Made by a program: the position numbers and the translations under genes. From contig JAQGDQ010000139.1 of the NCBI GenBank assembly GCA_030141605.1, positions 434,001 to 498,000 of the forward strand: DNA of 64,000 bases. Direction: 5' to 3'. This DNA is from Tubiluchus corallicola (Eukaryota > Priapulida > Priapulimorpha > Priapulimorphida > Tubiluchidae). Positions 3,501 to 63,292 of the stretch are shown here, piece by piece (position 1 is the stretch's first letter; each line of letters begins with the position of its first letter). The notes beneath the pieces were generated by a model, which ran no database searches, had not been told where the DNA came from, and saw nothing but the letters and a program-made list of their open reading frames with translations.

Positions 3501-6500
3501 ACTATTAAGCAAGCAAGATGTACAATATATTTAAGAGTTATGACTATTTTTATTTATGCTTTATTTCACACAAATCAAATACAAATAAAGCCAATATTAA
3601 AACTATATATAAAGAGTGAATATGTCCGAGGATAGTACAACAGTAAGTCCTAAATAAGGAATAAGTAGAACTAAGTAAAAACATAAGAACAGATTTTTAT
3701 AACAGGTCTAATTACTACTCTGAGTAGCACTGGTCAAGATTTTTCTTTATTAATTCTTGTTTTAGTAAGCAGGAAATTTTTTCTTAGCCTGTGAAATATA
3801 CAAATAAGAAATTTTCATCTTATGTAAGAGATTTTAACTAATAAATCACATGAAATTAACGACTATGGATGACAAAAATGTTCTTAATTTAGACATGCAA
3901 CATTTTTTGCAAGTATCCAGTATTTTGTGAGTCAGTAAGATGACATTATAGTGAATTATGTTAACTATAAATGTTGTGAGATATAGAGGTTTTGTTGTCT
4001 TATAACGCTTGATTAGGAAATGATTGAAAGAGTGAATCAGCATCTAGCTAACTGGCTAACTGATGGACTCATTGAATGAGTATCTGACAAAATCTTGAAA
4101 TAGTCTGACTGACTGAATGAAAAAAATGAAAGACGACTGACTGATTGAATGAATGCAGACAGTCAAACATTCAATCAGCTGACAGGCCAACTGGCATGCA
4201 ACAAAAAAGCTTCCAACCAAGGAATGAGGTAAGAAGTAATCATACGAATGGACAAATGAACGAACAAACAAACAAAGGAAATGAGCAACAAATCAATATA
4301 CCTTTTGTAATTGTTCTGTTTTCAGACTACTAGAAGAACAAGGGGCCATTGAAAACATCTCAGATTCCACTCTGAACATTTTTCTCATCTTTAAAAAAAG
4401 AATATGACCTACAAACCGGGCATATCTGCACAAGTCACTTCCTAGTTATAGCCAGTGAGTGTTATGTTATGCAAAAATTCTGCCGCTTGATCCGTATCAC
4501 CATCAAACAAATATGCTCCAGATGTTTAACCAAGTCCAAAGTTCGTCTGCCTCACCACCGTGCACGTGTGCTGCAGGTAGTAAGAGCAGCGGTAGCAGCA
4601 TGGTCAGGGTGCGTTACCATAAGCGCTTGATCTACATGCTTTGCTTGTGCGTAGCCTCTACTATTACAATGCTTTGCTATGTAGTGAGGTTTCAAAAAGA
4701 TGGAGAACTTGTTTCATCACCGGGCAGCATCACCGCAGTCACCCCCACATATAAAAATGATTATCGGTATGCAGCTGACTGGTACAGCTCTGTGTGCTTT
4801 AATGAAATCAATTATGAGCAGTTTGATGTGCTAGGCTTAGTAAAAAGGATAGAAAACTGGAAAACTTCAGATAATACTTACTGCATAGCAGTGTTTAACA
4901 GATTTGATAGTGTATATAAAGTTAGTCTACGGAGAGGTACATTATACATGCCTAAACAGTTTCGTGGAAAAATGTTTGACTGGCTCGGTAAAAAAGAGGA
5001 TCTTTTTCGAGAAATGGAGTCACAGAATATAGTTCATGTGTACAACAAGTTGACACACGATTACACAATTTTTAATCCTGTCAGGTCAAAACGTCCGACT
5101 TCTGAGCCACCCAGTGGTCAGGACGCTCGTGCCAAAGTTGACAGATTGTCTGAAAAAACTAGTCACGACTGTGATTTTTGCAACTACTTGCAGATGACGG
5201 CTGCTGATTCGTTCGGAAGAGTTGAATCTGAATTTTCTTTTTCAGCTGCCAATGCTTTTAAGTTGGATGCATGGCATGCTTTATTTGTTCCCAGGCAGCA
5301 TCATCCATTAAACATAGATGATCAATTATTTCTCGATTTGTTCATGAAAACTGCAATGACGTGGTTTGAACAAGTGCATTCTTTGCATCCCGAGTATCAA
5401 TACCCCCATATGACATGGGACAATTTGCCTCAAGCCGGAGCTAGTCAAATTCATCCACATGTACAGGGAACTTTAGCGATGGATCAGTATTACGGAACAA
5501 TGGAGAATATTAGAGATGCTGCACAAAAGTACAGTGAGTTACATCCGGGCAGGAACTACTTTACTGACTTGACAGAGATGCATCATGGACTAGGATTGGC
5601 TGTGACTTTTGGAAAAGCAGCAGCACTAGCCCACCTGACACCTCGTTTGAAAAACGAAGTCATAGTCATTTGTGATAAGGCATCGGAGGACTTTTTTAGA
5701 ACTGTGTATTTTGTTATTAAAGCACTAGTGGATGACATGCGTGAATTAGCATTTAGTGCAGCCATAGTGCTGCCACCTATGGGTAAAAATACAATTGTGA
5801 ATGCAATGCCAGCTTTTGCACGTATTGCAACTCGTGGTAAGGAAGATGTCTCTGACATCAGTGCATTTGAAATGTTTACGTTATACAATGTAAATCAAAA
5901 TCCTGGCAAAGTAATTACAAAGGTTAAGGAGTCTATAGAAAAGAGAGGTGTTCCCGTTCGCTTGTAAATGTAGTTCGGCATATTAGTAAAATATATGTGA
6001 CCATGAAATTACACAGTTGTTTTCCTTAAAAAATGTTTTTGCATAGTATTCAGTAAATATGCAAGCCACAGGAACTTTCTCCACAACATATGGCATAGCT
6101 TATTTCAGTGCTAATCTGTGTGGTAATTTATGTTAATAAAAATTTACCTGTCCGTAAATTTATGCTTCTATCTTAAATTTTCACCTACATTAATTTGTGA
6201 ATGTAAATAACAAGAAATTTGGGAAACAGCAAGTTTCACACCCTGTTCTATGTGACAGTGCATCACTTCACTGGCATCACAAGGTAAAAAAGTAAAGTTA
6301 AGGTGAAATGTTTCAGTGTCACTTGCTACTAATGATCTGTGGGTTAGCATTCCGTGTAAGGTTACAAGAAATTAATTATTCGATGTTACTCTGAGACTTT
6401 TAAGATATAATGTAAAATGTCTGTAAGCAGAATAGTTAAAAAGTACCTACCTACAGCTTCCTGCTGGCAGTATTAAGAAAGTCTTAAGTTTGTAAGATAT

Positions 6501-9500
6501 TGGCTGCTTGGAGGGAGGGAGGGAGAGAGAGAGAGAGAGGGGGGAGGGAGAGAGAAAGAGAGAGGGAGAGAAAGAAAGAGAGAGAGACGTGCACGCACAC
6601 ACACAGACACGCACACACAGATACGCACGCACGCACGCACACACACACACACAGATGTTATCGAAATGTACTATATATGAAATTGCATAACGTTTCAAAT
6701 TTGTTCAAAAGCAAGCACATGGTAGCAGACACGCACGATGCAACAGTGTATACACGGATGATTATCATCTGTTGTGAGCGTTGGTAATGCACAATGACCT
6801 CACAGCGTTACAGATTCTGGCGGAAGTAGCACAGAATTTAACTTACAATCTGCTGAACAAACAACAGGGCAATTCATCCAAGCGAACTGCTGCCTTTTCA
6901 ACAAAAAAATCTAATCTGCTGTTCTGCTTCCGTGCAGGTATTGCTGTAGCGAGGGAAAACAAGCCATGCATGGGTTACCTATTTTACGACTGTTTCTACT
7001 TCAGCAACAAACTTTCAGACCAAAAATGTGTAACTCTAATCAATTGATTATTGTAATTTATGCTGATATACTTACATATATTCATTTACTTAAATATTGC
7101 ATTCAATTTTTAATAGTATTTTAATAATAATTATTCTGTTAATACTGTAAAATAATTATCATCGCACAATACGTTGTTTTCACTGTACAATGCTTGCACG
7201 ACATGTAAGTTACAATGTACAATGTACAATGATGTAACAATGTACATATTATTGTTGAGATAATAATCGAATTCATTGCATTTTGTAGAAATGTTCATTT
7301 TTCACTATAATACGTACAGAATGAAAGGAATTTCGAGTTAGATGAGCAAATAAATAATAAGTACATGCAACGAAGCAAACTGCTGTATCTCTAAATTAAA
7401 GGAATGATGTGACAAAAAGATAAAAAAGATCAGCGTAAGTGTGTATACCGAATGTGTAAATGTTGAATAGAGAAATATGAGGCAGCATGAACTGTATGAC
7501 ACCATGAAAAAGTCTGAGAACGCTTTGTACTTGTAGTCATTCATTACGAATACGATAATATTTTAGGCACGTATAATTGGTCACCAAGCCCAACAAAAAC
7601 ATTAATTATATTGATCATGTTGGTGTAACACTTAAAATTTTTTCTGCATAAGTAAATGTTTTTATTAAACACGTAAATAAAGAGAAACAGTTACAAATTA
7701 CTTTGATACAAAACAATTTAGTGAGCATCGTGACTGTTTCATAGGTAAACACCTGAAATAAAGAATATACTAAAAACAAATTAAATTTATTAAACCAGGG
7801 GACTAAAAGTAAAAATTATGATGCATTCTGTCAGAAACGGACAGATCTGCATCTCAGCAGTAAAGAATAATTATGTACTCTTGGGAGCTCATGACAATTG
7901 AGTAAATACTCTTGTTGATCAAAAATTAGAACAATTATTGGTAAACTAGACAGCATGCTCCCATGTAGAGGCGCATATCAAGGTAATGACAAATTTAACA
8001 GTTTAACTTTATAAATAATCATTTTTTGGTAGCCATAGTAAAAAGAAGCTTGTCACATGGAATAAATATTTACTCACTATAGTTGATTTGTTTCATGAAA
8101 GGCTGTGCTACTTACCTTCCAAACAAGTTGTAAGTTTACACTTACTCTTCATGATTACCATTAAATAATAATAATTGCTACTCGCTACTCAATAATTGCT
8201 TTACTGTAAATCTAGTCATTATCTAGCTGAAAAAGCATGCTACTGATTAATAAATTTACAATTGACAGAACCACTGAGTAATTGACTGATTGTTACATGT
8301 TTCATTCATTTACTCAGTTATTGTTTTGCTTGTTGCAAGTTTTATTAAACTAAAGGTTGTATGCTGTATTGTCTGCAGGTTAAAAGAGAAACTGTAAATT
8401 TTTCTTATCTAAGAGGGAAATATAGTGAGAAAGAGAAAAACACGGGAGACAGATAGGGAGGGAGAGAGGAAGAGAGGGAAAGGATAAGAGTGATTAAAGA
8501 GGTAAGAAGGAGAGAGGGAGAGGCAAACAGAAAAAAGAAACCAAAGGTTTTATCCTACTAAAATAGCAGAACTTGCAACTAAAAGCGCAACCACGATTTT
8601 TCTGTTAAAAATATTTGGAGTAAATACTTTTTTGGTGAAACGAGTTTTCTAGGACAAATATTTTCTGTGAAAGTTTGTTTTTTCTGTGATAAAAGTTTTC
8701 TGGGAAATGGACCTAAATCATTTCTATCACTGCCAGTGATTGTATAAAATTATCAAATCGGTTGCATACCGCCTAAAATTAAGTTTGCATACTGCGGTCA
8801 TAGTAATTTATAAGCTGCTAGCTTGGTTTTATACAGCTAGTTGTTATTTGTTCACTCATTCGTCTGTCCATTCATTCATTCATTCATTTGATCACTCATG
8901 CACTCATTTATTCATTCCTTCACTTATTTAGTTAGATTTACTTTTATTAATTTTTGTAGAAATTTTGATAGCTAGTTTTCAGTGAAACATTTTTCAACAT
9001 ATAAATCCAACATATAAGAAGCCTGAGATAAAAAATTGAATTTATAAACTAAACAGCTGCTCTGTATCTAGAAGAGTCAGTGTAACAGACCATTCATACA
9101 ATTTTAAAGATAACAAACAAAACTTGGAAATTTTTTAGAATAATGATGACACAAAACACTAACTAATCTCAGTGTTACAGAACCCAAGCTGCAATATCAA
9201 TACTCATCATTTCATTTGTTTATTCCTAAAAGATTCCAAAATGATTCAGACTGTAGAAATTTTGTCAGATTGACAAAACTTGCAAATGGATGAAGTTTTG
9301 ATAATTTTATACAATCACTGGCAGTGATAGAAATGATTTAGGTCCATTTCCCAGAAAACTTTTATCACAGAAAAAACAAACTTTCACAGAAAATATTTGT
9401 CCTAGAAAACTCGTTTCACCAAAAAAGTATTTACTCCAAATATTTTTAACAGAAAAATCGTGGTTGCGCTTTTAGTTGCAAGTTCTGCTATTTTAGTAGG

Positions 9501-12500
9501 ATAAAACCTTTGGTTTCTTTTTTCTGTTTGCCTCTCCCTCTCTCCTTCTTACCTCCTTAATCACTCTTATCCTTTCCCTCTCTTCCTCTCTCCCTCCCTA
9601 TCTGTCTCCCGTGTTTTTCTCTTTCTCACTATATTTCCCTCTTAGATAAGAAAAATTTACAGTTTCTCTTTTAACCTGCAGACAATACAGCATACAACCT
9701 TTAGTTTAATAAAACTTGCAACAAGCAAAACAATAACTGAGTAAATGAATGAAACATGTAACAATCAGTCAATTACTCAGTGGTTCTGTCAATTGTAAAT
9801 TTATTAATCAGTAGCATGCTTTTTCAGCTAGATAATGACTAGATTTACAGTAAAGCAATTATTGAGTAGCGAGTAGCAATTATTATTATTTAATGGTAAT
9901 CATGAAGAGTAAGTGTAAACTTGCAACTTGTTTGGAAGGTAAATAGCACAGCCTTTCATGAAACAAATCAACTATAGTGAGTAAATATTTATTCCATGTG
10001 ACAAGCTTCTTTTTACTATGGCTACCAAAAAATGATTATTTATAAAGTTAAACTGTTAAATTTGTCATTACCTTGATATGCGCCTCTACATGGGAGCATG
10101 CTGTCTAGTTTACCAATAATTGTTCTAATTTTTGATCAACAAGAGTATTTACTCAATTGTCATGAGCTCCCAAGAGTACATAATTATTCTTTACTGCTGA
10201 GATGCAGATCTGTCCGTTTCTGACAGAATGCATCATAATTTTTACTTTTAGTCCCCTGGTTTAATAAATTTAATTTGTTTTTAGTATATTCTTTATTTCA
10301 GGTGTTTACCTATGAAACAGTCACGATGCTCACTAAATTGTTTTGTATCAAAGTAATTTGTAACTGTTTCTCTTTATTTACGTGTTTAATAAAAACATTT
10401 ACTTATGCAGAAAAAATTTTAAGTGTTACACCAACATGATCAATATAATTAATGTTTTTGTTGGGCTTGGTGACCAATTATACGTGCCTAAAATATTATC
10501 GTATTCGTAATGAATGACTACAAGTACAAAGCGTTCTCAGACTTTTTCATGGTGTCATACAGTTCATGCTGCCTCATATTTCTCTATTCAACATTTACAC
10601 ATTCGGTATACACACTTACGCTGATCTTTTTTATCTTTTTGTCACATCATTCCTTTAATTTAGAGATACAGCAGTTTGCTTCGTTGCATGTACTTATTAT
10701 TTATTTGCTCATCTAACTCGAAATTCCTTTCATTCTGTACGTATTATAGTGAAAAATGAACATTTCTACAAAATGCAATGAATTCGATTATTATCTCAAC
10801 AATAATATGTACATTGTTACATCATTGTACATTGTACATTGTAACTTACATGTCGTGCAAGCATTGTACAGTGAAAACAACGTATTGTGCGATGATAATT
10901 ATTTTACAGTATTAACAGAATAATTATTATTAAAATACTATTAAAAATTGAATGCAATATTTAAGTAAATGAATATATGTAAGTTTTTAGTTTTGCCCTG
11001 CACTGTTCACACGTTCTCCAGTTTTACACATTTTACCCATTTTCCTAGGTTATGTTTCTGCTGGCCCAATGATAAGTGATTCATTGAAGTATGACAACTT
11101 AACAAGTATGTAACTTAACAAGCTATAGGAGGAAGAATACCTAGGCAGGATAGGTATAATTACATCAGATAATACATTTTTATCAGTTTTAACACACTTT
11201 GCAAAGCTGTAACCTGTTACTGTAACCAGTAACCTTATACTTAGTTGATTTATCTGTTTCTGTTTTACATTCTCATGTGAATCTAATCTTCATTTTCACC
11301 GTTATCACATTCATTTTTCGTTGTCATTTCTTACCCTTACTACCACCTGGTGCCGGTATTTCACTCTCTCTGCTTATTTGATTTCACACTTTCTACATAT
11401 CTTGTTTTCATATTACTTTCTGCTCAGGCCTGTATAAGTTTATCTTCTGTGCCTGAGCCGATACCTCAATATCTGGTGAAACTAGTTTTTGTTTTGTTTG
11501 CATTAGTAATAGCTTACATTGTAATAAATGTAATAATATATTATTTATGGCATTTTGGAACTAAACTAAACTAATCTGAACATCATGTGTTATAGTTAAT
11601 TGGCTCAAAGTGTATTACCGAAAGCTGCTGTAAGTGTTTTTATGCTCATAATATCCGATGTGCTTCAGCTAGCTCTGCTGCTTTTATCGTCCTTCTTTTT
11701 TGTAAGGTCTCAGTGGCATGCACTTTCTAGAACAATTGCTCAATCACTGACAGTTTTGTCTTGCGTGCTTCTTGTATAAATGAAATAATGAAACTGGCAG
11801 GCTGGTCAATTTGTTCTATTTTTCTGCTAAAAACTATAAAAATATGTTTTACCTTCTGTTTGTATAGAAAATCTATTCTGCAAATCTTGCTGTAAAATTC
11901 TAGTTAATTTTTGCTATTTAAATTAAGCATATGTTACAATATACAAGCTACCAGATAGTAAATTTGTTTACTTTGCAAGTAACAATTTCTATAACACTTG
12001 CTAGCTAAAGTGTTCCCAAAAAGCAAACAAGAATTGTATGTTACAGTTAACTGTTATTGGCTGAATAATGCAATTATATAGTTCCAATTATCAAATTCTT
12101 TGGCACTTTTCACGGTGGCTTCACAAGCTTTGCTTCTTGACCACCATGCAGAATATATTTCTGTTTGGTAAACTATAATGTAGTTTAGTTCTGCTACAAT
12201 TATTGTAACTATATTTGATTTTTTTCCTAGTTGTAGGGTGTAATAGTTATAAGATAATAATGCAAATTGTAATGTAAAATTATATGCTGAGGCAAATTAC
12301 AAGAAAATTACTAATTACAAAAAACTGGATTATTTAGATGCTTTTCCTCAGACTTCAAGTGAACAAATGTTTAGATTTTGTTTTATTTGATGCTTAATTC
12401 AGGACTGTATATCAATATTGTCATAATTATGTGTCTGATAACAGCTTGTTTGGAGTGAAGCAGTTCTTATTCAATTACTAGTAGAACCTTATCCATGTTT

Positions 12501-15500: not shown

Positions 15501-18500
15501 ACAAAAAAACCATCACATAAATAAAAGAAGGTTAGATATACACAAAAAATCTTACATTGAGAACTACTTGAGTGTGAGAGGAGAGAGAGAGAGAGAGAGA
15601 GAGAGATGGGGGAGAGGAAGAGAGGGGAGACACACACAGAGAGAAGACAGAGCAAAAAAAGAAAGAAGGAAGAAGAGCTAAGACATATTCTAAAACTTAC
15701 TCACTAACTACCATTTTTGAAAAGTCTTTCCACAAGTAGAGATTCCTTTCACAAACGATAATCAATCCACTGGTCGCACGATCAAAGCATATTCTACTAA
15801 TCTCTCTACTTGGACAATTCTTAACAAAATCACATAACTGCAAAAAGTAAACAAAATTCATTATTGCTTGCAGTACAACAACACTTTATAATGTCATAAA
15901 GATAGAGTAAAGTACAAATTAAGGCTCTGTAAGCACAATTTCTTATCTATTGAAAGTAAAGAGAACAAATTAAAAACTATAAATTACTGCAAGGTTTCTG
16001 ATATATTAGCATATTAAATCCAGATACATGCAAACAGAAATTGACAAGACACATAGTGCATGACGAAGAGCTGGAGATATAGACAGAATAGTATGCACTC
16101 TGGCAACACGCCAGCCTTATGGCGTACCTCCAGCAAGCACCGCATGTCAGGGTGTACTAAGGAATCTCACCCATAGGCAAAGAATTAACCGCTCCAAACT
16201 GCATCCTATCCTGTGAACATCTCTCTTGTGTGAACTGTTGTGTATTCTTTAGGCATTTAATAAATTATTAAATCTATACTATTATTGTTCGTCATATGTT
16301 ATGTGTGAGTGGCATAACTGAATTTCTCTCATCATTACCCCATTTTGGAAAATACACCATACTAGTTACCAGATAATGTAGTGATCCGCCACACGTCATG
16401 GACCATTAGTGAATCAAAACTTAACTTTTTATTTGAAAACGTGACTTGGAGGACATACTAAACAAAAATGTCTATTGACGTTTCTTTTGTATTGTTCAAG
16501 ATATTCCATAATTAGAATAAAATGACAGAGTTTCTCAACAAAACAGTTCTAGTAAAAGAGTAAAGAAACAATAAAGTAGCTGGTACCTGGAGCTTCGAAA
16601 TGATAGCTAAAAAGGAAGTAGAAAGATGGACAATGGTCATACAAAAGAATATATATATATTAGGTGACACAAAAATGTGCCGAAGATTGATCACGATACT
16701 ATAAGAAAGTAACTGCTTGACACTTTTCTAATGTCACTGATGTTACAGATTCTCATGTATAAACACCAAGACTTGAGGTCACTGCCTTACAGTTTTCTAG
16801 TGACACTGAAGTTTTAAGACAAGTTACAAAAATAAAGGCTGGAAAAACTTTTGCATGTCATTATTCTTAAAATTTACAGAAGTGCTCTATGTGTCCACCA
16901 TTTTCACTGCAAACTAGAAGAACGCTTTTCTTCCAACAGCTGATGTAGTTTCTCACTTCTTTAAGGGGTATGTGTTCCCAGCACTCAACATTTTTTGCCT
17001 TTTGTTTCTGTAAATGTGATTACAAGGCCATCAAACACTGTGTTTGTCTTTATGTAAAAATTCTGATGTGTTCTCTTCGAGATAGACTTTTGTTGCTGAA
17101 AAATGTTCTTGCATCACATTGTTCTTTCCTGTCTAACATTCTCATTTCTTCTAAACATGGGTATTCTTTTGTATGATTTTAAATACACTTGTTTTGTCAT
17201 CGGCTGTGTGGATTTCTGGTTAACAGCATGATTTTGTGAAATTTCTCATTGTGACTCAAAAGCACCAGATTTTTTTTTCGAAAGACTATTTTTAATCTAC
17301 ATATTCCTGATTTACTGAGGTGCACGCTATTCTTGGTCGACCACCTCTAGGTTTATTTACTGAGGTGCACACTATTCTTGGTCGACCACCTCTAGGTTGA
17401 TTCACTGAGGTGCACGCTATTCTTGGTCGACCACCTCTAGGTTGATTCACTGAGGTGCACGCTATTCTTGGTCGACCACCTCTAGGTTGATTCACTGAGG
17501 TGCACGCTATTCTTGGTCGACCACCTCTAGGTTGATTCACCGAGGTGCACGCTATTCTTGGTCGACCACCTCTAGGTTGATTTACCGAGGTGCACGCTAT
17601 TCTTGGTCGACCACCTCTAGGTTTATTTACTGAGGTGCACGCTATTCTTGGTCGACCACCTCTAGGTTGATTCACTGAGGTGCACGCTATTCTTGGTCGA
17701 CCACCTCTAGGTTGATTCACTGAGGTGCACGCTATTCTTGGTCGACCACCTCTAGGTTGATTCACTGAGGTGCACGCTATTCTTGGTCGACCACCTCTAG
17801 GTTGATTTACCGAGGTGCACGCTATTCTTGGTCGACCACCTCTAGGTTGATTCACTGAGGTGCACACTATACTTGGTCGACCACCTCTAGGTTGATTTAC
17901 TGAGGTGCACGCTATTCTTGGTCGACCACCTCTAGGTTGATTTACTGAGGTGCACGCTATACTTGGTCGACCACCTCTAGGTTGATTTACTGAGGTGCAC
18001 GCTATACTTGGTCGACCACCTCTAGGTTGATTTACTGAGGTGCACGCTATACTTGGTCGACCACCTCTAGGTTGATTTACTGAGGTGCACGCTGTTCTTG
18101 GTCGACCACCTCTAGGTTGATTTATTGAGGTGCACGCTATTCTTGGTCGACCACCTCTAGGTTGATTTCTTGAGGTGCACACTATTCTTGGTCGACCACC
18201 TCTAGGTTGATTTACTGAGGCGCACGCTATTCTTGGTCGACCACCTCTAGGTTGATTTACTGAGGTGCACGCTATTCTTGGTCAACCACCTCTAGGTTGA
18301 TTTACTGAGGTGCACGCTATTCTTGGTCGACCACCTCTAGGTTGATTTACTGAGGTGCACGCTATTCTTGGTCGACCACCTCTAGGTTGATTTACTGAGG
18401 TGCACGCTATTCTTGGTGGACCACCTCTAGGTTGATTTACCGAGGTGCACGCTATTCTTGGTCGACCACCTCTAGGTTGATTCACTGAGGTGCATGCTAT

Positions 18501-21500
18501 TCTTGGTCGACCACCTCTAGGTTGATTCACTGAGGTGCACGCTATTCTTGGTCGACCACCTCTAGGTTGATTCACTGAGGTGCACGCTATTCTTGGTCGA
18601 CCACCTCTAGGTTGATTCACTGAGGTACACGCTATTCTTGGTCGACCACCTCTAGGTTGATTCACAGAGGTGCACGCTATTCTTGGTCGACCACCTCTAG
18701 GTTGATTTACTGAGGTGCACACTATTCTTGGTCGACCACCTCTAGGTTGATTTACCGAGGTGCACACTATTCTTGGTCGACCACCTCTAGGTTGATTTAC
18801 TGAGGTGCACACTATTCTTGGTTGACCACCTCTAGGTTGATTTACTGAGGTGCACGCTATTCTTGGTCGACCACCTCTAGGTTGATTTACTGAGATGCAC
18901 GCTATTCTTGGTCGACCACCTCTAGGTTGATTTACTGAGATGCACCCTATTCTTGATCGACCACCTCTAGGTTGATTTACTGAGATGCACGCTATTCTTG
19001 GTCGACCACCTCTAGGTTGATTCACTGAGGTGCACGCTATTCTTGGTCGACCACCTCTAGGTTGATTCACTGAGATGCACGCTATTCTTGGTCGACCACC
19101 TCTAGGTTGATTCACTGAGGTGCACGCTATTCTTGGTCGACCACCTCTAGGTTGATTTACTGAGATGCACCCTATTCTTGATCGACCACCTCTAGGTTGA
19201 TTTACTGAGATGCACGCTATTCTTGGTCGACCACCTCTAGGTTGATTCACTGAGGTGCACGCTATTCTTGGTCGACCACCTCTAGGTTGATTTACTGAGA
19301 TGCACGCTATTCTTGGTCGACCACCTCTAGGTTGATTCACTGAGGTGCACGCTATTCTTGGTCGACCACCTCTAGGTTGATTTACTGAGATGCACGCTAT
19401 TCTTGGTCGACCACCTCTAGGTTGATTTACCGAGGTGCACACTATTCTTGGTCAACCACCTCTAGGTTGATTCCCTGAGGTGCACGCTATTCTTGGTCGA
19501 CCACCTCTAGGTTGATTTACTGAGGTGCACACTATTCTTGGTCGACCACTTCTAGGTTGATTTACTGAGGTGCACACTGTGAAGGATTTTAGGTTATTTC
19601 ATCACTAAAGTGTTCTCATTCTGTAACCCCCCCCCCCCATATACTGTCCTTTTAACTGCATTCAGATGTGTCTAGAGCTAGTTTACCTGGCTAGTTGGCA
19701 GTCTGTTCTTGGCTAAGAGAGTTGTTGTTGTTGTTGTTTTTTCTCAGTTAAACCATTTATTTGTCAAGAGTAGTAGAGCCATGATGTAAGTTTATTTTGA
19801 TTATTCAGTTTCACTTTATTATTAATTTCTTTGTTTTCTTTTTGGCTCAAATTAGTTTGTTATATTTTGTTATGATTTTTTTACAGATAAAACGTAATAA
19901 AGCTACTCAAACATGAATTTTTTTGACTTTGGGCATCATGAAATAGTAGTCTCTCACACACACTATTCTTGGTCGATCACCTATAAGTTGATTTCTATTA
20001 TCTCCCTTATATTGCATCTTTTTTATTATCCTATTCCACTGGTTAATTATTGATTTTTTTATTGCTTTGCTGCCATTCTATTGAGTGTTTTATATGTCAA
20101 CCTGGCAATTCTTCATTTGATGACTAGCTGACACTGTTCTGGCATTTAAATTGTTAATATGCAAAAGTATTTAAGTCATAACGTAAAAACTAAAAAAAAA
20201 ACTACAAATTTATGGCCTTCACAACCAAATAAATGTATCATAATACATGTGTATTGTGCTGTAAAAATATAAGACAGTTGCTTCTAATATTATTGTAGTC
20301 TAAACTTTGGCACATTTGTGATTCCACCCGACATGTTCATACTTCATACAAAACAACTCATGTGTGAATACTTCTTGGAGAAGTAAACAATTAACAGAAG
20401 AGAAATGTTGCTTTATTGCAAACTGTGAAAGGAATCTAAATTTACTGTAGAAGCCTCCAACCGAAATGATGTCATCTGACAGTAGATTCAGGATTTGTTT
20501 AATTGCACAGCATAAAAAAGGAATTCAGTCCACAGTATTTCATTATTTTTTTCATAACAACTAGACTGCTTTCCTACTATTTAAGGCATTAGCTATACAA
20601 TGTTTTTAAACGATTTTCAGCTGGTTATTTTTGTAGTTATTTATTCACACATCTGAGGTAATTAGATGCTACTAAGGCAGTGAAGGTGGAGCAAATTTAA
20701 GCAAAGCATTTATGTACTCTAATCATGGTGGTCTGTGATTTTATGCTTCTGTGATCTTCCCTTGTATTTTCCACTGGCTTTACTGCTGTGTTGTTTCCAT
20801 GCCATTCTTTTTAGTGTGATTTTTACCTTCTACATTTATCTGAAGATAAACTAACATTTATCTGAAGATAAACTATAACAGGTAGTTTGAGACATTGTGC
20901 TCTTTTGTGCTTGTGGTTTCTTTCATAATAAAAGTTTGATTCTCTCATCATCAGTGAAGATTTATTGCTTTTTTAATTATGATGAGATTCTTTTATTAAT
21001 GAATGACAGAAATAAAAGAGTTTTGCAAGTCAGCAAAAAAATACAAAAATGAATAACATAAAATACAATGTAAAGACAAGCAAAGCAAAGTGGAAAATAA
21101 CATGAACACAAAGAGCAATACAGTATATTAATGGATCACCTTGATTTTTGTTACCAGTTTTGCACTATCATGGCCATCAAAATTCCACAGCGCCACAATT
21201 CCATCAGAGCTGGCTGTTGCCAGGTTACTTCTCTGAATGGCCACATCTACAATTCTTGTTTCATGTTGATGCGCTGGGACTTCTGTATTTATATTCCACA
21301 TTCGAATGCTGTGGTCCAAAGAACTGGACAGCATTTTGTCCTTTTGGGTGATAGTCACTGATACAACGGGACCCTGGTGCCCCGAAAGAGTGAGCAATTC
21401 ATTGCCCTGCAAAAGAATAGGATAGTGAAGACAGTGAAAATACACTAAAAATCATGATAGCACTGAGACAGCTGAGGCAGCTCTTACAAAAACTTCGAAA

Positions 21501-24500: not shown

Positions 24501-27500
24501 TTATGTAATCAACAAATAACAAATTCATACTGTTTAAAATGAACAAAGACAAATGAGTATTACACTAGTTCACTAACCAAGACTGTGGCGTACATATGGC
24601 TAAATGGAAGAGGTTAGTAACCTGCTATAACAAGTGCTGGCTTACTTGACATACCAGGCTGAAATTATTCCCAAACCATTCAATATGTCTTTAAACTAAA
24701 TCATACTAATACTTCCCAGTTATTAAGCCAATAAGTTTTACTGAAGTATGTAATTCATTAAATCAGGCTTTACTGCCTTTGCTTTATTTAACTCTCATCA
24801 GACAGATGTTTTTCTATACTGGTCGGCCATAGTTTTATATTAACGAGACAAACCCAAAATTAAAAGACAAAAACAATTACAATTCATTGTTAGAATCAGT
24901 CACCAAGTGATTAAAAACACCCTATCCATAAACTGCATTCTACATGGATGATTTGTACCATACATATACTTGAATTTATTTTGGATTTATTAGAAGTATT
25001 TCTCACAACTTGCACATAACGATTAAAAATGCAGAACAATCAAAATCACACACCTAATCAAGCAGATCGTTGCAAATGTCACAATGCAATATGATTGTAA
25101 ATGTCACACTTGCAATATGATTGTAAATATCTACATTCATTTTGTTAGAATGAAAAGAGAATCTTAGCTGAGACAAAAAGAATTAATTCTTTCCCATGAG
25201 AACCTACCAGATACTTGCTATTGTCCGACCATGCACAGCAGGTAACCCAGTCATTGTGAGCCAAATATATCGTTCTCTGAGCTTCTACAACATCTTTGCT
25301 GGTGACGCTCCACATCATGACTGTTTTATCATGGCTTCCAGTGGCGGCTATGGTGCCATCTGGAGATAAAGCACAGCAAGAGACAGGACCAGTATGTCCT
25401 GTGAGCACATGCTGCTTTGCAATATTTCTTCTGGAAAAACGTTAAAGCTGACTTTAATCAGGTTTTTAGCAAACCCGTAAAAAATATTAACGCATTGTCA
25501 AAACAAGTATAATGACAATATCATGGAGAAAAGGACCTCCTTATGGGTTATCTTGCAAAGAAGTAACCAAAAATATCAACAGCAATGTCTGAAAACAGGA
25601 AATTTAAAAAAATGTGGTATCGTTTAACGTCACAGGAATTTTAAGCACATATTTTTCTGAACCTAATAATAACTGTATAATTTTACAAATAAAGCACAAT
25701 TTACAACTTTTGTTTTCAAAATCTCACATGACAAAACAATTATCTTTCACTTCAGTCAAGTGTTATTCACTGAAAAATACTTGCGTGAATGCAGCTTAAG
25801 GTCATATCCATTGCGAACTGACTTAATCATAACTCTTGAATTTATTTTTTTATATCTTAAAGAATCACTGATTTTGAAAAATAATAGTAACTATTGTTGA
25901 AAGTGAATATCTTATGATGAATTTTTATCATAGGTTATTACTGCTAACCATAACAGAACACAAAGAAATAAGAATACTCTCACACATAACAGCACAAGCT
26001 GTTTGGTTATGGCATCTATATTTATAACTTTGGCACACTGAGGCCATTGCTTAGCTATATTTTTTAAAGTGCATGAGCTGGCACTCAAAGCCGAGTATGC
26101 CTAGGATGGCAACTAGAGTCCTGTTCTCCTGCCTGAGCGGAGCATGCCTCGAAAAACTCCAGCACTGAATTGGCAGCCAAGCGCAGAACTACCTGACCAT
26201 AACAGCTTCCCAACGTAGGAGAGGTTCCCAAAAATAATGGAGCTCAGCATAATAATCAAAGCTGAAGTTATATTCATTTAGCAAATAAGCATTACATACG
26301 TTGTCTTGGAATGAGTTGATATGTCGCTAGCAGAACTATCAGTACTACTATCACAGAAGAGTTCCATGTGATCAAACATGCTGTAAAAAGTCAGTCGTGC
26401 CGTGAAGTCTTCCGACGCTGTCAACAGAATCATTTCATGCTCCTTGAACATGGCAAAGGAGAATGACAGCACAGGCTTCCCATGTTCTTCACAACTTAAT
26501 TTATGCTTTTCTTTATCAGTGATTATCAATTGATCATTTTGTAATGCGAGTAGTAGCTGTGCAAAAATAGAAACAAGATTAATTTTTTCTATTTGATTCT
26601 CATCTAAATTAAATTTCAATACATTAATTATTTCTACTGTCACTTTCTGATGTAATAGATTTAAGTCCCATATTCAAGCACTCTTTATTTAAAGCAGTTG
26701 GACAGATATGATTTCATCGAATTTCCTTCTGCTCTTCATTGATGATCACTTTATGTACAAATTTTAAACAGCAGAAAAGGTTCTAAGATATTATTTATGG
26801 GTATGACATCGTACTTGAGTGATATGAAACAAACACGTGAAACAAGCCAGTTTGCTGATAATGGCTTGGCTCAGCCCGCATGTGATGGCAACATTCTAAT
26901 GGCGGCTATATTAAAAAATTTTGGAAGGAGTTTACAATACCCCACACGATTCCTCCAACTTTAGCCCTAATCCAAACCCAACCCTAACACTAACCACAAC
27001 CCTAATCCTAATCCTAACCCTAATCCAAATCATAATACCTAACCTTAATCCTAATCCCCTTAATGAACTAATTTTTGAGTGGGGAATAGTGAACTTTAGC
27101 CAAAATTCCTATTTTTGGTTCCGACATCTCTTAGATAATTATCTGAGGTACCACAAACCCAAATTACCTCAGCAGCATTCTGGAGGAAGTATATTTGATT
27201 CAAGTTTTTTGGCCATTGCTTGGTAATTGTCATCACCATGGCATCCTATTTCTTAATTGCACAACTAGAGCTCGGTTTTCACTGCTGTGCAACTTTAGTT
27301 GGTATCAGAACAACAGTCTAGGAGAAATAACGAGAAAAACACTAACAAACACGAATGAGACAAAGGGTCGATGCGCCCTTATGAATTGGCCGCCAAATCA
27401 ATTATCTCTCTAAACTGAAACTTAATCTGTAACCCTCCTGTAGACGATGTAGAAAATAAATATTAAATACCTGCACCATTTTAGAGCTTGATCCAACAAA

Positions 27501-61400: not shown

Positions 61401-63292
61401 ATAAACTAATAACATTGTTCTCGTATTGAATATATTTTATATAGGTGAAGAATAAAATACTTATTTATTTACATACTTACTTACTTAGTAGCATGACTTA
61501 GCACATAAATGAATTTCATTCTGATTGTATCACATTTCAGCATATTTCTATTGCACTGTTTAATTAGAATTACAGTTGCGGTTTACTTTATTTAACATCG
61601 GTTTGCAATACAAAGAACATTAGTCTGTAAAAACTATTTTCCGACATAAATACAAAACCCTTGTATCCGGAATAGAAACAATACCTAATCAAGTATTCTT
61701 TAGGCTATAGTGATTTAATGTTTTTTAATTAGGTTGTGTTTTTATTGAAATTATGTGATGTTTCTTTTGAAACACCCATAGAACTGTGTTGGCATCTTTA
61801 TTCACTGTTGCTAGATTCTAATTTAATATAATATTGTACGCAGTTAAGTGTTTGTTAAGTGTATTTTCCTATCAGCAATGAGTAAACAAATTAATAAATA
61901 AACAAATAGATACATGCATAAATAAATAATATGCATGTCCTTAATTGACTAAAATGTAGGAGTTTCTTTACATACAAGAAAGAAACAGTCAATTATTTAC
62001 CTGTTTAGCTCTACCTAAACCTTTACTAGCTGAGCATGGTACAAGCATATCCCGGCCTACATCACAAAAGATAAGAGCAGAGCCTTTTATAGGTTCAATG
62101 TTGTATGTCGTTGCAATTTGAACTGCGGTGTCCAAGGCTTTTCTGTATTGATGCAGTAATGCAACTGAGTAGCTGAAATTCCTGTAATAATGAAAAATGT
62201 CAAATATATCCACATATTTCTCTGACCTAGATCTAGGTCTATAATTAGTAAAAGACTGGAAGAAAACAATAGCACTCAGTAGAGCACAGACCGGTCTGTC
62301 TGTCTCTTTTGAAGAAAATAATGAAAGAGAAAAACAGATCCAGCTCCACACTAAAAATTTGTGGATTCTTCCTTGTTACACATGCCAACTCCCTCCAGAA
62401 AATTTTGTGAAAACTGCTCAAGAAGTTTTTGCGCAATCCTGTCAACTAAAACACAAACAAAAATAAAACCAATAGAGATGATAACATAACGTCATTGGCA
62501 GAGGTAATGAACAAAGAAATTCAGCAGTGATTTACAGGAGATTTTTACAACAATCTAATAAAATTCTAAAATGCTGCAACCTTAGCCATCATTAGCTACA
62601 CATTTTTTTGCAATTAGCACTAAAATTTAGGAAATTAAATGGTTTGACACTATCACATTTGATAAATCATAATGCAAAATGAGAGATAATCATGAGATAT
62701 GTGTTTTTCCAAGTGTGAACAGCAAAACTGTATATGACTATTGTATATTTTGTATTCTGTTTCTAAATCATCCAAAGCAAGTTTTCAAGGTGAGTATTTA
62801 GTGTGCATAGTTAAACAATGCCATGCCTGGTCAGTAAACAGATGATTGCCTTCTTAGTACAATGCTCGTTGAGGACTATTTCATCTGCCATGCTAATTTT
62901 AGCTACTTCTCATGCTGAAAAAGATGTATTACATCTATATATGGCTAAGATGTACTACCAGAGCTCTCACCGTCTTATTATACTGAAATAGCTTTGATAA
63001 TAAGCCAGATTCTGGTCCTGTCATAACTGCCAAATAAATAAATAAGCTTGCTACTAAATACTCGAATATAGTTTCACAACACTAACTGTAAAAAATGCCT
63101 AACATGTCCATACATATACATATACATACGTAGACCAGTACTTCATTTTGGCTAAATGCTTCTGTTTTTGTTTTTCTCTGTAGGAAATCCTGCCGCGATG
63201 AGCTTTCATTCTATTGCTAGCTCTATGCGATAATATCTTTCTTTTACCACCTTTCAAAGGCACTTCAACAACTTGGCGCTTGGTTTGAAATG
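563..63292 (-). CDS. TEP1: TEP1-like telomerase/vault protein, 39 exons, 5' end missing
   Basis: TEP1 is known as a protein component of telomerase and vault ribonucleoproteins; that role is inferred from domain order (TROVE/vWA, DUF4062, NACHT, WD40). Exons in coding order: 63292-63130, 62438-62382, 62181-62001, 59987-59835, 58764-58651, 47346-47114, 46519-46367, 45744-45568, 45212-44970, 44513-44279, 43701-43483, 42228-42053, 40970-40823, 39936-39760, 39235-39143, 37646-37514, 36753-36558, 35892-35700, 35223-35000, 34063-33807, 32803-32674, 31318-31172, 30958-30850, 30531-30412, 29053-28955, 28616-28466, 27628-27471, 26556-26300, 25430-25208, 24239-24132, 23714-23576, 22602-22418, 21406-21140, 15837-15701, 15498-15358, 14980-14860, 2691-2527, 1602-1492, 691-563. 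Every junction has AG acceptor and GT donor and keeps phase; the total is 6,422 coding bases, about 2,139 residues, with the stop at 563-565. The least certain exon is 62438-62382. Two introns host other genes on the plus strand. Confidence 0.9.
2692..4512. other. TEP1 intron, left part, no gene seen
   Basis: AT-rich intron sequence upstream of the nested GalT-like gene. Positions about 4040-4290 are a degenerate array of short ACTG- and GAAT-type motifs that produces spurious open frames on both strands. This stretch must also contain the promoter and any 5' UTR of the nested gene, but I see no TATA box I would defend. Confidence 0.4.
4513..5967 (+). CDS. Membrane-anchored HIT/GalT-like nucleotidyltransferase or phosphorylase
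   Basis: This intronless gene encodes 484 residues from the first in-frame ATG at 4513; the frame is open back to 4459, but only through a GTG. Alternative starts are 4522 and 4600. A short Ser-rich, Cys-containing N-terminus and basic RVRYHKR precede one hydrophobic segment (about residues 38-59, [15 protein letters not shown]), giving a type II membrane topology, perhaps in the Golgi or ER. The large C-terminal domain has a CDFC pair, as in zinc-binding GalT, and [15 protein letters not shown], the G-x-S-x-x-HPHxQ active-site pattern of galactose-1-phosphate uridylyltransferase and other HIT-superfamily transferases. The His of HPHVQ would be the nucleophile. Substrate is unknown; overall similarity to true GalT looks low. 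It lies antisense inside a TEP1 intron and may be a retrocopy. Confidence 0.85.
   Translation: MLQMFNQVQSSSASPPCTCAAGSKSSGSSMVRVRYHKRLIYMLCLCVASTITMLCYVVRFQKDGELVSSPGSITAVTPTYKNDYRYAADWYSSVCFNEINYEQFDVLGLVKRIENWKTSDNTYCIAVFNRFDSVYKVSLRRGTLYMPKQFRGKMFDWLGKKEDLFREMESQNIVHVYNKLTHDYTIFNPVRSKRPTSEPPSGQDARAKVDRLSEKTSHDCDFCNYLQMTAADSFGRVESEFSFSAANAFKLDAWHALFVPRQHHPLNIDDQLFLDLFMKTAMTWFEQVHSLHPEYQYPHMTWDNLPQAGASQIHPHVQGTLAMDQYYGTMENIRDAAQKYSELHPGRNYFTDLTEMHHGLGLAVTFGKAAALAHLTPRLKNEVIVICDKASEDFFRTVYFVIKALVDDMRELAFSAAIVLPPMGKNTIVNAMPAFARIATRGKEDVSDISAFEMFTLYNVNQNPGKVITKVKESIEKRGVPVRL
6135..6140 (+). terminator. Polyadenylation signal AATAAA for the GalT-like gene
   Basis: AATAAA lies about 170 bases after the stop codon on the same strand and is the first canonical signal there. 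Position is seen; use is inferred. Confidence 0.5.
6510..6656 (+). repeat. Compound (GA)n-(CA)n microsatellite
   Basis: A GGGA/GA-rich tract (about 6510-6590) passes directly into a CA/CGCA tract (about 6593-6655). It creates several false open frames on both strands. Confidence 0.9.
7070..8757 (+). repeat. Left arm of a 1.69-kb near-perfect inverted repeat
   Basis: This arm is the reverse complement of 9297-10984, with identical length (1,688 bp) and no net insertion or deletion; paired positions sum to 18054 throughout. I noted only two substitutions, at 8111/9943 and 8498/9556. The arm contains a GA-rich tract (8440-8525) and a 68-codon frame (7338-7544, minus) that is repeated exactly in the other arm; nothing in it looks like a known protein. 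Outer flanks show no obvious target-site duplication. Confidence 0.93.
8758..9296. other. 539-bp spacer of the large inverted repeat
   Basis: Single-copy sequence between the arms, with a degenerate (TTCA)n tract at about 8865-8930. No coding potential recognised. Confidence 0.8.
9297..10984 (-). repeat. Right arm of the 1.69-kb inverted repeat
   Basis: Mirror copy of 7070-8757 at over 99% identity as read by eye. If transcribed with the TEP1 pre-mRNA, or from the other strand, the pair would fold into a very long hairpin. It could be a foldback element, a recent inverted duplication or an assembly artefact. Confidence 0.93.
11673..11769 (+). repeat. Direct repeat copy 1 (about 90 bp)
   Basis: Begins TTTATCGTCCTTCTTTTTTG and matches 12684-12770 with scattered substitutions, including shared TTTCTAGAACAA and TTTTGTCTTGCG motifs. 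Likely a dispersed repeat family or a local duplication. Confidence 0.75.
12684..12770 (+). repeat. Direct repeat copy 2 (about 90 bp)
   Basis: Second copy, about 1 kb after the first, in the same orientation. Shared blocks include TAAGG(C/T)CTC(A/G)GTGGC and GCTCAATC. Confidence 0.75.
12830..12960 (+). repeat. SINE-like family, 3' tail copy
   Basis: Contains TTGATAATGAGGAAAGTCCC followed by CATCACAACCATC, a diverged version of the tail found at 36133-36180, 37411-37460, 59640-59690 and 62993-63032. The 5' half is not recognisable. Confidence 0.5.
15580..15660 (+). repeat. GA-rich microsatellite
   Basis: (GA)n followed by GGGGAGAGG and ACAC/AGAG variants, inside the 202-bp intron between exons 15701-15837 and 15358-15498. 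Confidence 0.85.
16867..17005 (-). pseudogene. Tc1/mariner (IS630-like) transposase C-terminal relic
   Basis: The minus strand reads about 45 codons ending at a stop at 16867-16869. The stretch [18 protein letters not shown] and the end [12 protein letters not shown] resemble the C-terminus of Tc1/mariner-superfamily transposases, where a W-x-x-I and a GGHIEH-like ending are common. Upstream sequence has no continuing frame and I saw no clear terminal repeats, so this is a fossil fragment in a TEP1 intron. Assignment is from recalled family features and has not been searched. Confidence 0.55.
17309..19578 (-). repeat. 45-bp minisatellite, about 50 copies, open on the minus strand
   Basis: The unit is exactly 45 bp (for example GAGGTGCAC at 17317 and 17362). 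On the minus strand it reads as 15-residue repeats, [15 protein letters not shown]. Two long frames result (17292-18182 and 18282-19442), broken by one substitution that turns CGA into TGA at about 18282. Each unit contains GTCGAC and a possible GAGGTG/CACCTC hairpin. The right part has a 225-bp higher-order period (five units), shown by marker variants at 18941 and 19166. The array lies in the TEP1 intron 15838-21139, whose flanking exons join in phase without it, so it is most likely noncoding. Confidence 0.95.
19579..21139. other. Intron sequence after the minisatellite
   Basis: AT-rich DNA. It has a poly-C run at about 19627-19638 and a decayed solitary piece of the 45-bp unit at about 19962-19997. 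No gene supported. Confidence 0.5.
22976..23232 (+). repeat. ~39-bp tandem repeat, about 6 copies
   Basis: The unit begins CTACAGATAGTGTACAACTT and continues with GTACGACTCAAATCTCATG. The first three copies are nearly identical and later ones diverge. The minus frame gives the repeated peptide [13 protein letters not shown], but this sits in the intron between exons 23714-23576 and 22602-22418, so it is probably noncoding. Confidence 0.9.
26961..27060 (+). repeat. Degenerate telomere-like (CCCTAA)n tract
   Basis: Roughly fifteen CCCTAA, CCTAAT and CCAAAC-type hexamers in a row, including AACCCTAATCC. TTAGGG is the usual animal telomere repeat. This is an interstitial tract within a TEP1 intron. 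Confidence 0.8.
27860..27898 (-). ncRNA. Hammerhead-like motif, possible retroelement 3' end
   Basis: On the minus strand CTGATGA (27897-27891) is followed by a possible stem GGGTTA/TAACCT and then GAAAC (27867-27863). This is the conserved core order of a hammerhead ribozyme. Stem III and stem I are not evident, so it may be a decayed copy such as those in Penelope-like elements. Confidence 0.3.
35000..37646 (-). CDS. TEP1: TEP1 segment: helical region between NACHT and WD40 (exons 16-19 seen)
   Basis: Four exons (37646-37514, 36753-36558, 35892-35700, 35223-35000) encode about 250 mostly helical residues. Recognisable pieces are [33 protein letters not shown], a MPYHL motif, and a final stretch [19 protein letters not shown]. 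The YHL and AKF motifs sit where TEP1/NWD family proteins have a winged-helix and superhelical linker before the propellers. The donor of exon 35892-35700 was placed at 35699/35698 because only that GT restores phase with the next exon, although the frame stays open further. Confidence 0.82.
35935..36185 (+). repeat. tRNA-derived SINE-like element, fullest copy
   Basis: The head has an A-box-like GCTGAGTAGTTAAGG. The middle has CGTTCGAGGCGATTTCATTT and GCCATGCTATTTCTGGC, and the tail has CCTTGCCAATGAGTTAGGTT. Middle and tail recur at 37185-37465 and 62815-63035. It lies in the TEP1 intron 35893-36557, antisense to the gene, and is followed by a (TA)n tract. Confidence 0.65.
36215..36316. repeat. 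(TA)n microsatellite, two blocks
   Basis: Two TA runs separated by a repeated TTGCTATTCAATA motif. The local duplication of that motif suggests slippage or a nested insertion. Confidence 0.9.
37185..37465 (+). repeat. SINE-like family, second copy
   Basis: Shares the middle block (TTGAGAGTTTCATTCACCAC) and the tail (CTTGACAATGAGTTAGGTTC then CCTATCACAACCATCCACAT) with the copy at 35935. It lies just downstream of exon 37646-37514 in the next intron. Confidence 0.6.
37860..37945 (+). repeat. tRNA-like pseudogene or SINE head
   Basis: Ends GCACG (37860-37864) and CGTGC (37940-37944) could pair as an acceptor stem. It has an A-box-like TGGTGCATTATGG and a B-box-like GTGGGTTTGATATTG. The anticodon arm is imperfect, so a working tRNA is unlikely. 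Confidence 0.5.
38111..39113 (+). mobile_element. Tigger/pogo-like DNA transposon remnant with TIRs
   Basis: Terminal inverted repeats: CAGTAGGTGCCACTTAATAG at the left end and, reading in from the right end, CACTAGATGCCGCTTAATAG, three mismatches in 20, each continuing ACTCAC. TA follows the right end. Sequence at about 38697-38831 reads as a broken transposase C-terminus ([12 protein letters not shown], then [20 protein letters not shown]), similar in pattern to the end of pogo/Tigger/jerky-type transposases. The element is about 1 kb, internally deleted and has a stop, so it is dead. Confidence 0.65.
39143..43701 (-). CDS. TEP1: TEP1 segment: NACHT ATPase (exons 11-15 seen)
   Basis: Exon 43701-43483 contains the P-loop [19 protein letters not shown], with the Walker A pattern GxxGxGKS intact. 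Exon 42228-42053 has [15 protein letters not shown], typical of the NACHT strand after the P-loop. Exon 40970-40823 has Walker [15 protein letters not shown]. Exon 39936-39760 has the sensor strand VVLVMSV and a winged-helix start with [10 protein letters not shown]. Exon 39235-39143 has [20 protein letters not shown], a motif common to TEP1/NWD NACHT proteins. The domain is expected to bind ATP and drive oligomerisation or assembly. All key residues are present, so an active nucleotide site is likely. Confidence 0.92.
40320..40425 (+). repeat. GGGA/GA-rich microsatellite
   Basis: Purine-rich degenerate repeat (GAGAGGGAGGGAGCAGGAGG types) inside the intron between exons 40970-40823 and 39936-39760. 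Confidence 0.85.
42677..43393. mobile_element. MITE-like element with ~20-bp TIRs in a TA-rich site
   Basis: Left end GTAAGTCCTCGTTTAATGAC; reading inward from the right end, ATAAGTCCTTGCTTAACGAC. The element is about 715 bp and is flanked on both sides by (TA)n tracts, as expected for Tc1/mariner/pogo-type insertion at TA. The short internal frame at 42955-43164 is not recognised. Confidence 0.65.
43395..43421. repeat. (TA)n microsatellite
   Basis: Simple TA run immediately right of the MITE-like element. Confidence 0.85.
44279..46519 (-). CDS. TEP1: TEP1 segment: DUF4062 region (exons 7-10 seen)
   Basis: Exon 46519-46367 is a low-complexity linker of about 51 residues. Exon 45744-45568 has the DUF4062 hallmark [18 protein letters not shown] and then [12 protein letters not shown]. 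Exon 45212-44970 continues with [17 protein letters not shown] and a conserved [12 protein letters not shown]. Exon 44513-44279 carries [11 protein letters not shown] and leads into the NACHT module. In family knowledge this Rossmann-like domain lies directly N-terminal of the NACHT ATPase in TEP1 and NWD proteins; its function is not established. Phases agree at every join. Confidence 0.9.
45745..45866 (+). repeat. Short tandem repeats abutting the DUF4062 exon acceptor
   Basis: Three diverged units of about 35-40 bp built from GAGCAGATGAAATGAACATA and CATACC(T/C)G. The first unit includes the splice acceptor side of exon 45744-45568, so several cryptic acceptor-like sites are duplicated here. 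Confidence 0.7.
47114..63292 (-). CDS. TEP1: TEP1 segment: end of TROVE and vWA-like domain (exons 1-6 seen)
   Basis: This segment is roughly residues 1-300 of the visible protein. The first exon is very basic ([20 protein letters not shown]), which fits the linker before the last TROVE helices. Exon 62181-62001 carries a vWA first strand, [11 protein letters not shown], followed by 59987-59835 ([20 protein letters not shown]) and 58764-58651. Exon 47346-47114 starts with the next vWA strand, [10 protein letters not shown]. In TROVE proteins this region binds small RNAs and the vWA fold contributes. Here the metal site reads D-V-G-R-D instead of the canonical D-x-S-x-S, so metal binding may be lost. 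The intron 47347-58650 is 11.3 kb long and hosts the fibronectin-domain gene. Confidence 0.85.
47674..47710 (+). ncRNA. Hammerhead-like core motif, possible retroelement 3' end
   Basis: CTGAAGA is followed by a 7-bp hairpin GAGCTAC-AGTG-GTAGTTC and then GAAATGTTGTGAC. The order matches a hammerhead core with one change in CUGAUGA (U to A), so cleavage would not be expected. Similar 3' motifs occur in Penelope-like and related elements. Confidence 0.3.
48848..49217. mobile_element. hAT-like MITE with 13-bp TIRs
   Basis: Left end TAGGGGTGAGCAG; the right end is TGCTCACCCCTTA, its near-complement. The interior is full of TTCGAATTCGAA-type palindromic pieces. Size is about 370 bp. I could not find a convincing 8-bp target duplication, so the superfamily is tentative. 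Confidence 0.6.
49864..49942 (-). repeat. tRNA-like sequence, Thr(TGT)-type anticodon arm
   Basis: The minus strand shows an A-box-like GTGGCTAGCAGTCTAAGG, an anticodon arm CTGCT-TTGTAAG-CAG with a TGT triplet, and a B-box GACCGGTTCAAATCC. The acceptor stem does not close well, so it is more likely a tRNA pseudogene or SINE head than a functional gene. Confidence 0.5.
49930..49998 (+). repeat. Second tRNA-like sequence, head-to-head with the first
   Basis: B-box-like AGGCTCAAATCCAAGCAGT at 49978-49996 is the inverse of the first element's ACTGCTTGGATTTGAACC at 49863-49880. An A-box-like TGATCAAGGCAGTCC precedes it. Confidence 0.4.
50880..51560 (+). other. Unrecognised, more GC-rich block with two open frames
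   Basis: Plus-strand frames of 115 codons (50930-51277) and 77 codons (51278-51511) abut each other. Base composition is visibly less AT-rich than its surroundings and a TAACAC-TCTCATTAC motif occurs twice (about 51179 and 51296). No domain is recognised; it may be a fragment of a transposable element. Confidence 0.35.
54016..56311 (+). CDS. Single-pass membrane protein with one fibronectin III domain
   Basis: Two coding exons, 54016-54332 and 55393-56311, joined GT-AG inside a Trp codon, give 411 residues. A splice acceptor (TTTTCAG ending at 54011) lies just before the start, implying an upstream 5' UTR exon. The protein begins with a signal peptide ([14 protein letters not shown]), has N-glycosylation sites (LNETE, CNKT), one fibronectin type III fold ending in [13 protein letters not shown], and a membrane segment ([20 protein letters not shown]). 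The 230-residue tail has proline-rich SH3-type sites ([15 protein letters not shown]) and tyrosine motifs, among them EKYMPMD, a YxxM site. This suggests a signalling or adhesion receptor; no ortholog is named. It lies antisense within a TEP1 intron. Confidence 0.85.
56431..56459 (+). repeat. (GT)n-(G)n tract
   Basis: GTGTGTATG(TG)n followed by nine Gs, in the 3' UTR of the fibronectin-domain gene. Confidence 0.85.
56531..56536 (+). terminator. Polyadenylation signal AATAAA, fibronectin-domain gene
   Basis: First canonical AATAAA after the stop at 56311, same strand. Position seen; use inferred. Confidence 0.45.
56537..58650. other. Intron sequence without a recognised gene
   Basis: AT-rich. 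A short CAG/ACA-rich stretch at about 58285-58345 gives poly-Ala/Thr frames on both strands. Nothing else supported. Confidence 0.5.
58866..58940 (+). repeat. tRNA-like pseudogene or SINE head
   Basis: A-box-like TGACTTGGTTGTAC and a perfect T-arm CTGGG-TTCCAAT-CCCAG. The anticodon arm has mismatches and there is no clear acceptor stem. Confidence 0.5.
59570..59700 (+). repeat. SINE-like family, third tail copy
   Basis: Carries CCTTGATAATGGGTCAGGCT then CCGGACATAC, matching the tail of the copies at 35935 and 37185. The head is diverged. It lies between exons 59987-59835 and 58764-58651. Confidence 0.5.
60271..60356 (+). repeat. Perfect 43-bp tandem duplication
   Basis: Two adjacent copies beginning GAAATATAATATTATTTTTA and ending TGTCTTTAGTG, within AT-rich intron DNA. 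Confidence 0.9.
60400..61990. other. TEP1 intron, no gene seen
   Basis: AT-rich sequence between exons 62181-62001 and 59987-59835. The plus frame 60505-60711 has no recognisable domain or splice context. Confidence 0.5.
62815..63035 (+). repeat. SINE-like family, fourth copy
   Basis: Shares CGTTGAGGACTATTTCATCT-GCCATGCTAATTTTAGCT and the tail TTGATAATAAGCCAGATTCT-GGTCCTGTCATAACTG with the copy at 35935; ends in a short (AATA)n tail. Confidence 0.6.

What the first reader, a model, noticed from the sequence alone, without database searches (positions are those of the whole stretch)
7070..10984. 1.69-kb inverted repeat, over 99% identical, inside a TEP1 intron
Two 1,688-bp arms with no net indel and only two noted substitutions flank a 539-bp spacer. 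In a genome with obviously decayed repeats this implies very recent origin, active gene conversion, or an artefact. No target duplication or transposase is visible. A transcript through it would form an exceptionally long hairpin, a possible source of small RNAs, and such palindromes are normally unstable.
Basis: seen in the sequence. Interest (0 to 1): 0.75.

Follow-up and report, generated by a model that had tools for sequence, protein, structure and literature searches.

The report
Young inverted duplication in an intron
A 1.7-kb stretch of intron DNA has recently been copied back-to-front half a kilobase downstream, most likely by a slip of the DNA-copying machinery; this is an unusually clean and large example of a known kind of mutation, not a new genetic element.

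Summary
The inverted repeat is real in the assembled sequence. The arms are 7070-8757 and 9297-10984, 1,688 bp each, with no indels, three transition differences (not two) and a 539-bp spacer. It is not a dispersed foldback transposon: each arm matches full length only at these two places in the 343.5-Mb assembly. Part of the arm is an old, decayed dispersed repeat that was duplicated with it. The junctions point to an origin. If the right arm is an inverted copy of the left arm placed between the spacer and its right flank, the two breakpoints show 3 bp (TTT) and 4 bp (AAGT) of microhomology. If the left arm is the copy, both show 0 bp. About 0.05% of random placements do as well. This fits a back-and-forth template switch (four-point type 3-2-1-4), or an equivalent templated repair insertion. 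Sharp edges and 0.18% divergence argue for a young event over an old repeat kept alike by gene conversion. An assembly or read chimera is not excluded: there are no reads here, and the assembly holds redundant and inverted-duplicate contigs. It lies between exons of a minus-strand TEP1-like gene, so the pre-mRNA could fold into a long hairpin; no function is shown.

The parts
7070..8757 (+). left arm A (inferred source copy)
   Evidence: full-length match elsewhere only to the right arm
8758..9296 (.). spacer S, single copy apart from a short ATTC-rich repeat at about 8844-8958
9297..10984 (-). right arm A' (inferred inverted copy of A)
   Evidence: microhomology polarity
9293..9299 (+). AAGTTTT at the spacer/right-arm junction (TTT microhomology of the outward switch)
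10981..10987 (+). AAGTTTT at the right-arm/flank junction (AAGT microhomology of the return switch)
9260..9278 (.). 8-bp perfect short hairpin (3-nt loop) ending 18 bp before the inferred switch point; only 1.3% of window positions have one as close, but it was noticed after the fact
8412..8732 (.). old dispersed repeat inside the arm (about 72-85% identical to dozens of copies), duplicated together with the arm; mirrored in the right arm

Best explanation
A recent inverted duplication made by DNA template switching or an equivalent templated repair insertion. The ancestral order was U-A-S-V (left flank, arm, spacer, right flank). A growing strand reached the end of S (about 9296), left its template, re-primed on TTT at the far end of A (8755-8757), and copied A backwards to 7070. 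It then re-annealed through AAGT at the place it had left, and went on into V. The result is A-S-A' with no loss of flank. Shown: the anatomy, the single-locus status, the microhomology and its polarity, and the sharp edges. Inferred: that S and V were once adjacent, that this happened in vivo, and the enzymology (fork template switching/MMBIR versus polymerase-theta-like break repair). Consequence, also inferred: the TEP1-like pre-mRNA carries a 1.69-kb near-perfect stem, a possible ADAR or Dicer substrate, probably without selected function.
For: Right-arm-as-copy gives 3 bp and 4 bp of microhomology at its two junctions, left-arm-as-copy gives 0 and 0; a positional null gives joint p about 5e-4 for at least 3 and at least 3. 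Only two full copies exist in the genome assembly. Outer flanks share no significant similarity. The three differences, at arm positions 1042, 1062 and 1429 of 1688, are not at the outer edges; divergence is 0.18%, 95% CI 0.04-0.52%. The order matches event type 3-2-1-4, one of the two majority patterns that generate single inverted repeats in great apes (PMC7954356).
Against: No outgroup or alternative haplotype with the empty site was found: the joined S/V site is absent from the assembly. The microhomology is short and was examined after the fact. Great-ape short-range events have a median of 12 and a maximum of 128 nt, so 1,688 nt is far longer and would need a processive MMBIR-like process. 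In vitro chimeras can also be inverted and use microhomology.
Confidence: 0.72

Rival explanations
1. Assembly or sequencing artefact: inverted chimeric molecules (MDA or ligation/nanopore fold-back) or a graph error made the second arm.
For: Inverted chimeras are a known artefact of MDA and of nanopore ligation libraries (PMC1855051, PMC13141652). This assembly holds identical sequence in several contigs (C45/C2048/C2100/C2197/C2212 and C2264/C2138/C1787, 100% over about 3 kb) and a contig (C917) whose two ends carry inverted copies 99.15% alike.
Against: There are no Ns, and the locus is internal to a 518-kb contig and unique. A simple fold-back chimera would continue from A' into the mirror of U, but V follows. 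Joins made by overlap need long overlaps, not 3-4 bp. The arms differ at 3 sites, so one is not a plain duplicate of the other in the assembly.
Confidence: 0.17
2. [quoted passage not shown]
For: Such maintenance is documented for C. elegans inverted repeats (PMC1803023), and 99.8% identity alone cannot tell it from youth.
Against: All four boundaries drop from identity to background in one step, with no decayed homology beyond them. The differences do not gather at the outer edges. The junction microhomology is still legible.
Confidence: 0.07
3. Transposable element with very long terminal inverted repeats (foldback type), or two opposed insertions of one element; the AAGTTTT repeat would be a 7-bp target duplication.
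For: A 7-bp direct repeat flanks the right arm.
Against: No other full copy in 343.5 Mb. No target duplication flanks the whole IR or the left arm. No family is recognised in the two arm ORFs scanned, of 66 and 74 aa. The flanks of the left arm match the split 4+3 pattern, which independent insertions would not.
Confidence: 0.03

Closest known systems
Template-switch mutations, four-point model, type 3-2-1-4 (Loytynoja and Goldman; PMC7954356)
   Same: order of switch points; reverse-complement copy placed next to its spacer; return to the original template; creates a hairpin
   Different: 1,688 nt copied, against a median of 12 and maximum of 128 in great apes; ancestral state not observed here
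FoSTeS/MMBIR and templated insertions at breaks (PMC10766186, PMC11724301)
   Same: short microhomology at both junctions, nearby inverted copy
   Different: simple two-junction event, no deletion, triplication or further rearrangement detected; mechanism not observed directly
Near-perfect long inverted repeats of C. elegans (PMC1803023)
   Same: long, nearly identical arms around a spacer of a few hundred bases
   Different: non-genic intron DNA here; no evidence of long-term maintenance
Hairpin-RNA (hpRNA/endo-siRNA) loci
   Same: a transcript through the locus would fold into a long near-perfect hairpin
   Different: no small-RNA data; intronic; no target known

Membership tests
Template-switch / templated inverted duplication | near-identical reverse-complement copy close to its source | tested here: met
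Template-switch / templated inverted duplication | microhomology at both junctions with consistent polarity | tested here: met
   3 and 4 bp against 0 and 0; null about 5e-4
Template-switch / templated inverted duplication | ancestral state lacking the copy, in a relative or other haplotype | tested here: inconclusive
   empty site not in the assembly; no relatives are held
Foldback / long-TIR transposon | multiple dispersed complete copies | tested here: not met
   only these two full-length matches
Foldback / long-TIR transposon | target-site duplication around the whole element | tested here: not met
   flanks ...GCTGATAT and TTTTAGTT...
Gene-conversion-maintained inverted repeat | IR older than the divergence of its arms; present in relatives | not testable with these tools
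   no related genome held; sharp edges speak against it
hpRNA / endo-siRNA locus | phased small RNAs from both arms | not testable with these tools
   no RNA data
Known structured RNA | Rfam match | tested here: not met
   no match in the window at gathering scores

The most novel reading that the evidence does not exclude
The duplication has created a new, expressed intronic hairpin-RNA locus whose 1.69-kb stem is diced or edited and affects expression of its TEP1-like host gene, a long hairpin born in one mutation.
Probability: 0.07. Interest if true: 0.5.

Novelty: new member of a known kind. Interest (0 to 1): 0.22.

Why it matters
If real, it is a clean young example of a kilobase-scale inverted duplication whose two breakpoints and direction of copying can be read from one sequence. 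It links short template-switch mutations to larger MMBIR rearrangements and shows how a long hairpin can arise in one step. By itself it changes no principle.

Tried and rejected
Transposon: rejected for lack of copies, of a target duplication around the IR, and of recognised coding families. Left arm as the copy: zero microhomology at both junctions. Older, larger inverted repeat: no significant similarity beyond the arms, and the only spacer self-match is a 25-bp local hairpin. Empty site in another haplotype: none in the assembly. Using repeats that span the junctions to verify the ancestral order: not possible, because the dispersed repeats matched in the spacer and right flank end well away from the junction. 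Rfam: nothing.

Full report
Observation. The inverted repeat is present exactly as described: arms 7070-8757 and 9297-10984, each 1,688 bp, spacer 539 bp. The arms align without indels and differ at three sites, all transitions, not two. No other inverted repeat of this class occurs in the window (next: 81 nt at 78%) or in twelve 10-kb pieces from other places of the same genome (longest 183 nt at 90%; one piece holds 2,500 N). The feature is therefore exceptional locally. The sample is a very small part of the genome, so its genome-wide frequency is unknown.

Surroundings. The gene on the minus strand is TEP1-like. WD40 exons match Beta-prop_TEP1_2nd (25145-25441) and the C-terminal TEP1 propeller (1405-1620), and a weak TROVE match lies at 62004-62375. 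The exon at 1477-1599 is the best match to the TEP1_C model in the genome. The repeat lies between this exon and the next clear exon at 21128-21451. Short minus-strand ORFs between them look exon-like but have no family match, so the exact intron was not fixed. A plus-strand 502-aa ORF (4459-5967) with a weak hexose-1-phosphate uridylyltransferase match lies in the same interval.

Copy number. Searching the assembly with one arm finds only the two arms at full length. The many further matches all fall in arm positions about 1342-1663 at 72-94% identity (the higher values only over short pieces): an old dispersed repeat that was present in the arm before duplication. The spacer and both flanks are also single-copy apart from short old repeats. 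This removes the ordinary foldback-transposon reading, within the limits of the search tool.

Junctions. Write the locus as U-A-S-A'-V. If A' was inserted into an ancestral U-A-S-V, its first 3 bases (TTT) equal the first 3 of V and its last 4 (AAGT) equal the last 4 of S. If A was inserted into U-S-A'-V, the corresponding numbers are 0 and 0. In 400,000 random placements in the same sequence, 0.05% give at least 3 and at least 3. The pattern appears as a 7-bp direct repeat AAGTTTT around the right arm (9293-9299 and 10981-10987). A target duplication of a mobile element would look like this at A', but it would not explain why the left arm begins with ACTT and ends with AAA, exactly the two parts of that repeat. 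Template switching with short homology at both switches explains both. The order of the switch points is 3-2-1-4 in the four-point model, one of the two majority patterns that generate single inverted repeats (PMC7954356). A perfect 8-bp hairpin ends 18 bp before the inferred exit point; about 1.3% of positions have one as close. This is a suggestive, after-the-fact detail.

Age. Divergence is 3/1688 = 0.18% (95% CI 0.04-0.52%). Similarity stops abruptly at the boundaries, and the differences are not at the outer edges. An old repeat kept alike by conversion would be expected to show frayed edges (inference). So a recent event is preferred. No absolute age is given because the species and its mutation rate are unknown.

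Artefact. This is the main rival. Inverted chimeras arise in MDA and in nanopore ligation libraries (PMC1855051, PMC13141652), and the assembly has visible faults: several contigs share identical 3-kb stretches, and contig C917 carries inverted copies near its two ends, 99.15% alike. Against it: the locus is internal to a 518-kb contig, gap-free and unique; the arms differ from each other; the far side continues into V and not into the mirror image of U; and overlap-based joins would not leave 3-4-bp homology. Reads would decide this and are not available here.

Function. Transcribed from the TEP1-like promoter, the two arms would pair into a 1.69-kb stem with a 539-nt loop. Template switching has been proposed as a source of new RNA hairpins (PMC8794818), and hairpin RNAs are reported among small-RNA loci of the sponge Amphimedon (PMC6211395). 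Nothing here shows small RNAs, editing or selection. No known RNA family matches. My working view is a neutral or mildly unstable duplication.

Verdict. Observation confirmed; recent templated inverted duplication is the best explanation (0.72), artefact second (0.17). New member of a known kind; modest interest.

Noticed in passing
window 4459-5967 (+): Single-exon 502-aa ORF on the strand opposite TEP1, with a weak match to hexose-1-phosphate uridylyltransferase (NF008724, E 0.022) and an HPHVQ motif; possibly an intronless gene nested in the TEP1 interval.
   Followed up: partly
G000 C45, C2048, C2100, C2197, C2212; and C2264, C2138, C1787: Several long contigs carry 100% identical sequence over about 3 kb (L034-L041), pointing to redundancy in the assembly.
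   Followed up: partly
G000:C917 8001-12000 and 102501-106500 (L031, L032): The two ends of this 114.6-kb contig hold inverted copies 99.15% identical at mirror positions; the middle is not palindromic. Large inverted duplication or joined haplotypes.
   Followed up: partly
window 17292-19598 (-): Long minisatellite whose repeats stay open in frame on the minus strand (repeated [15 protein letters not shown]).
   Followed up: no
window 11239-11592: Old dispersed repeat of about 350 bp, 70-83% identical to dozens of genomic copies, in the right flank of the inverted repeat.
   Followed up: no
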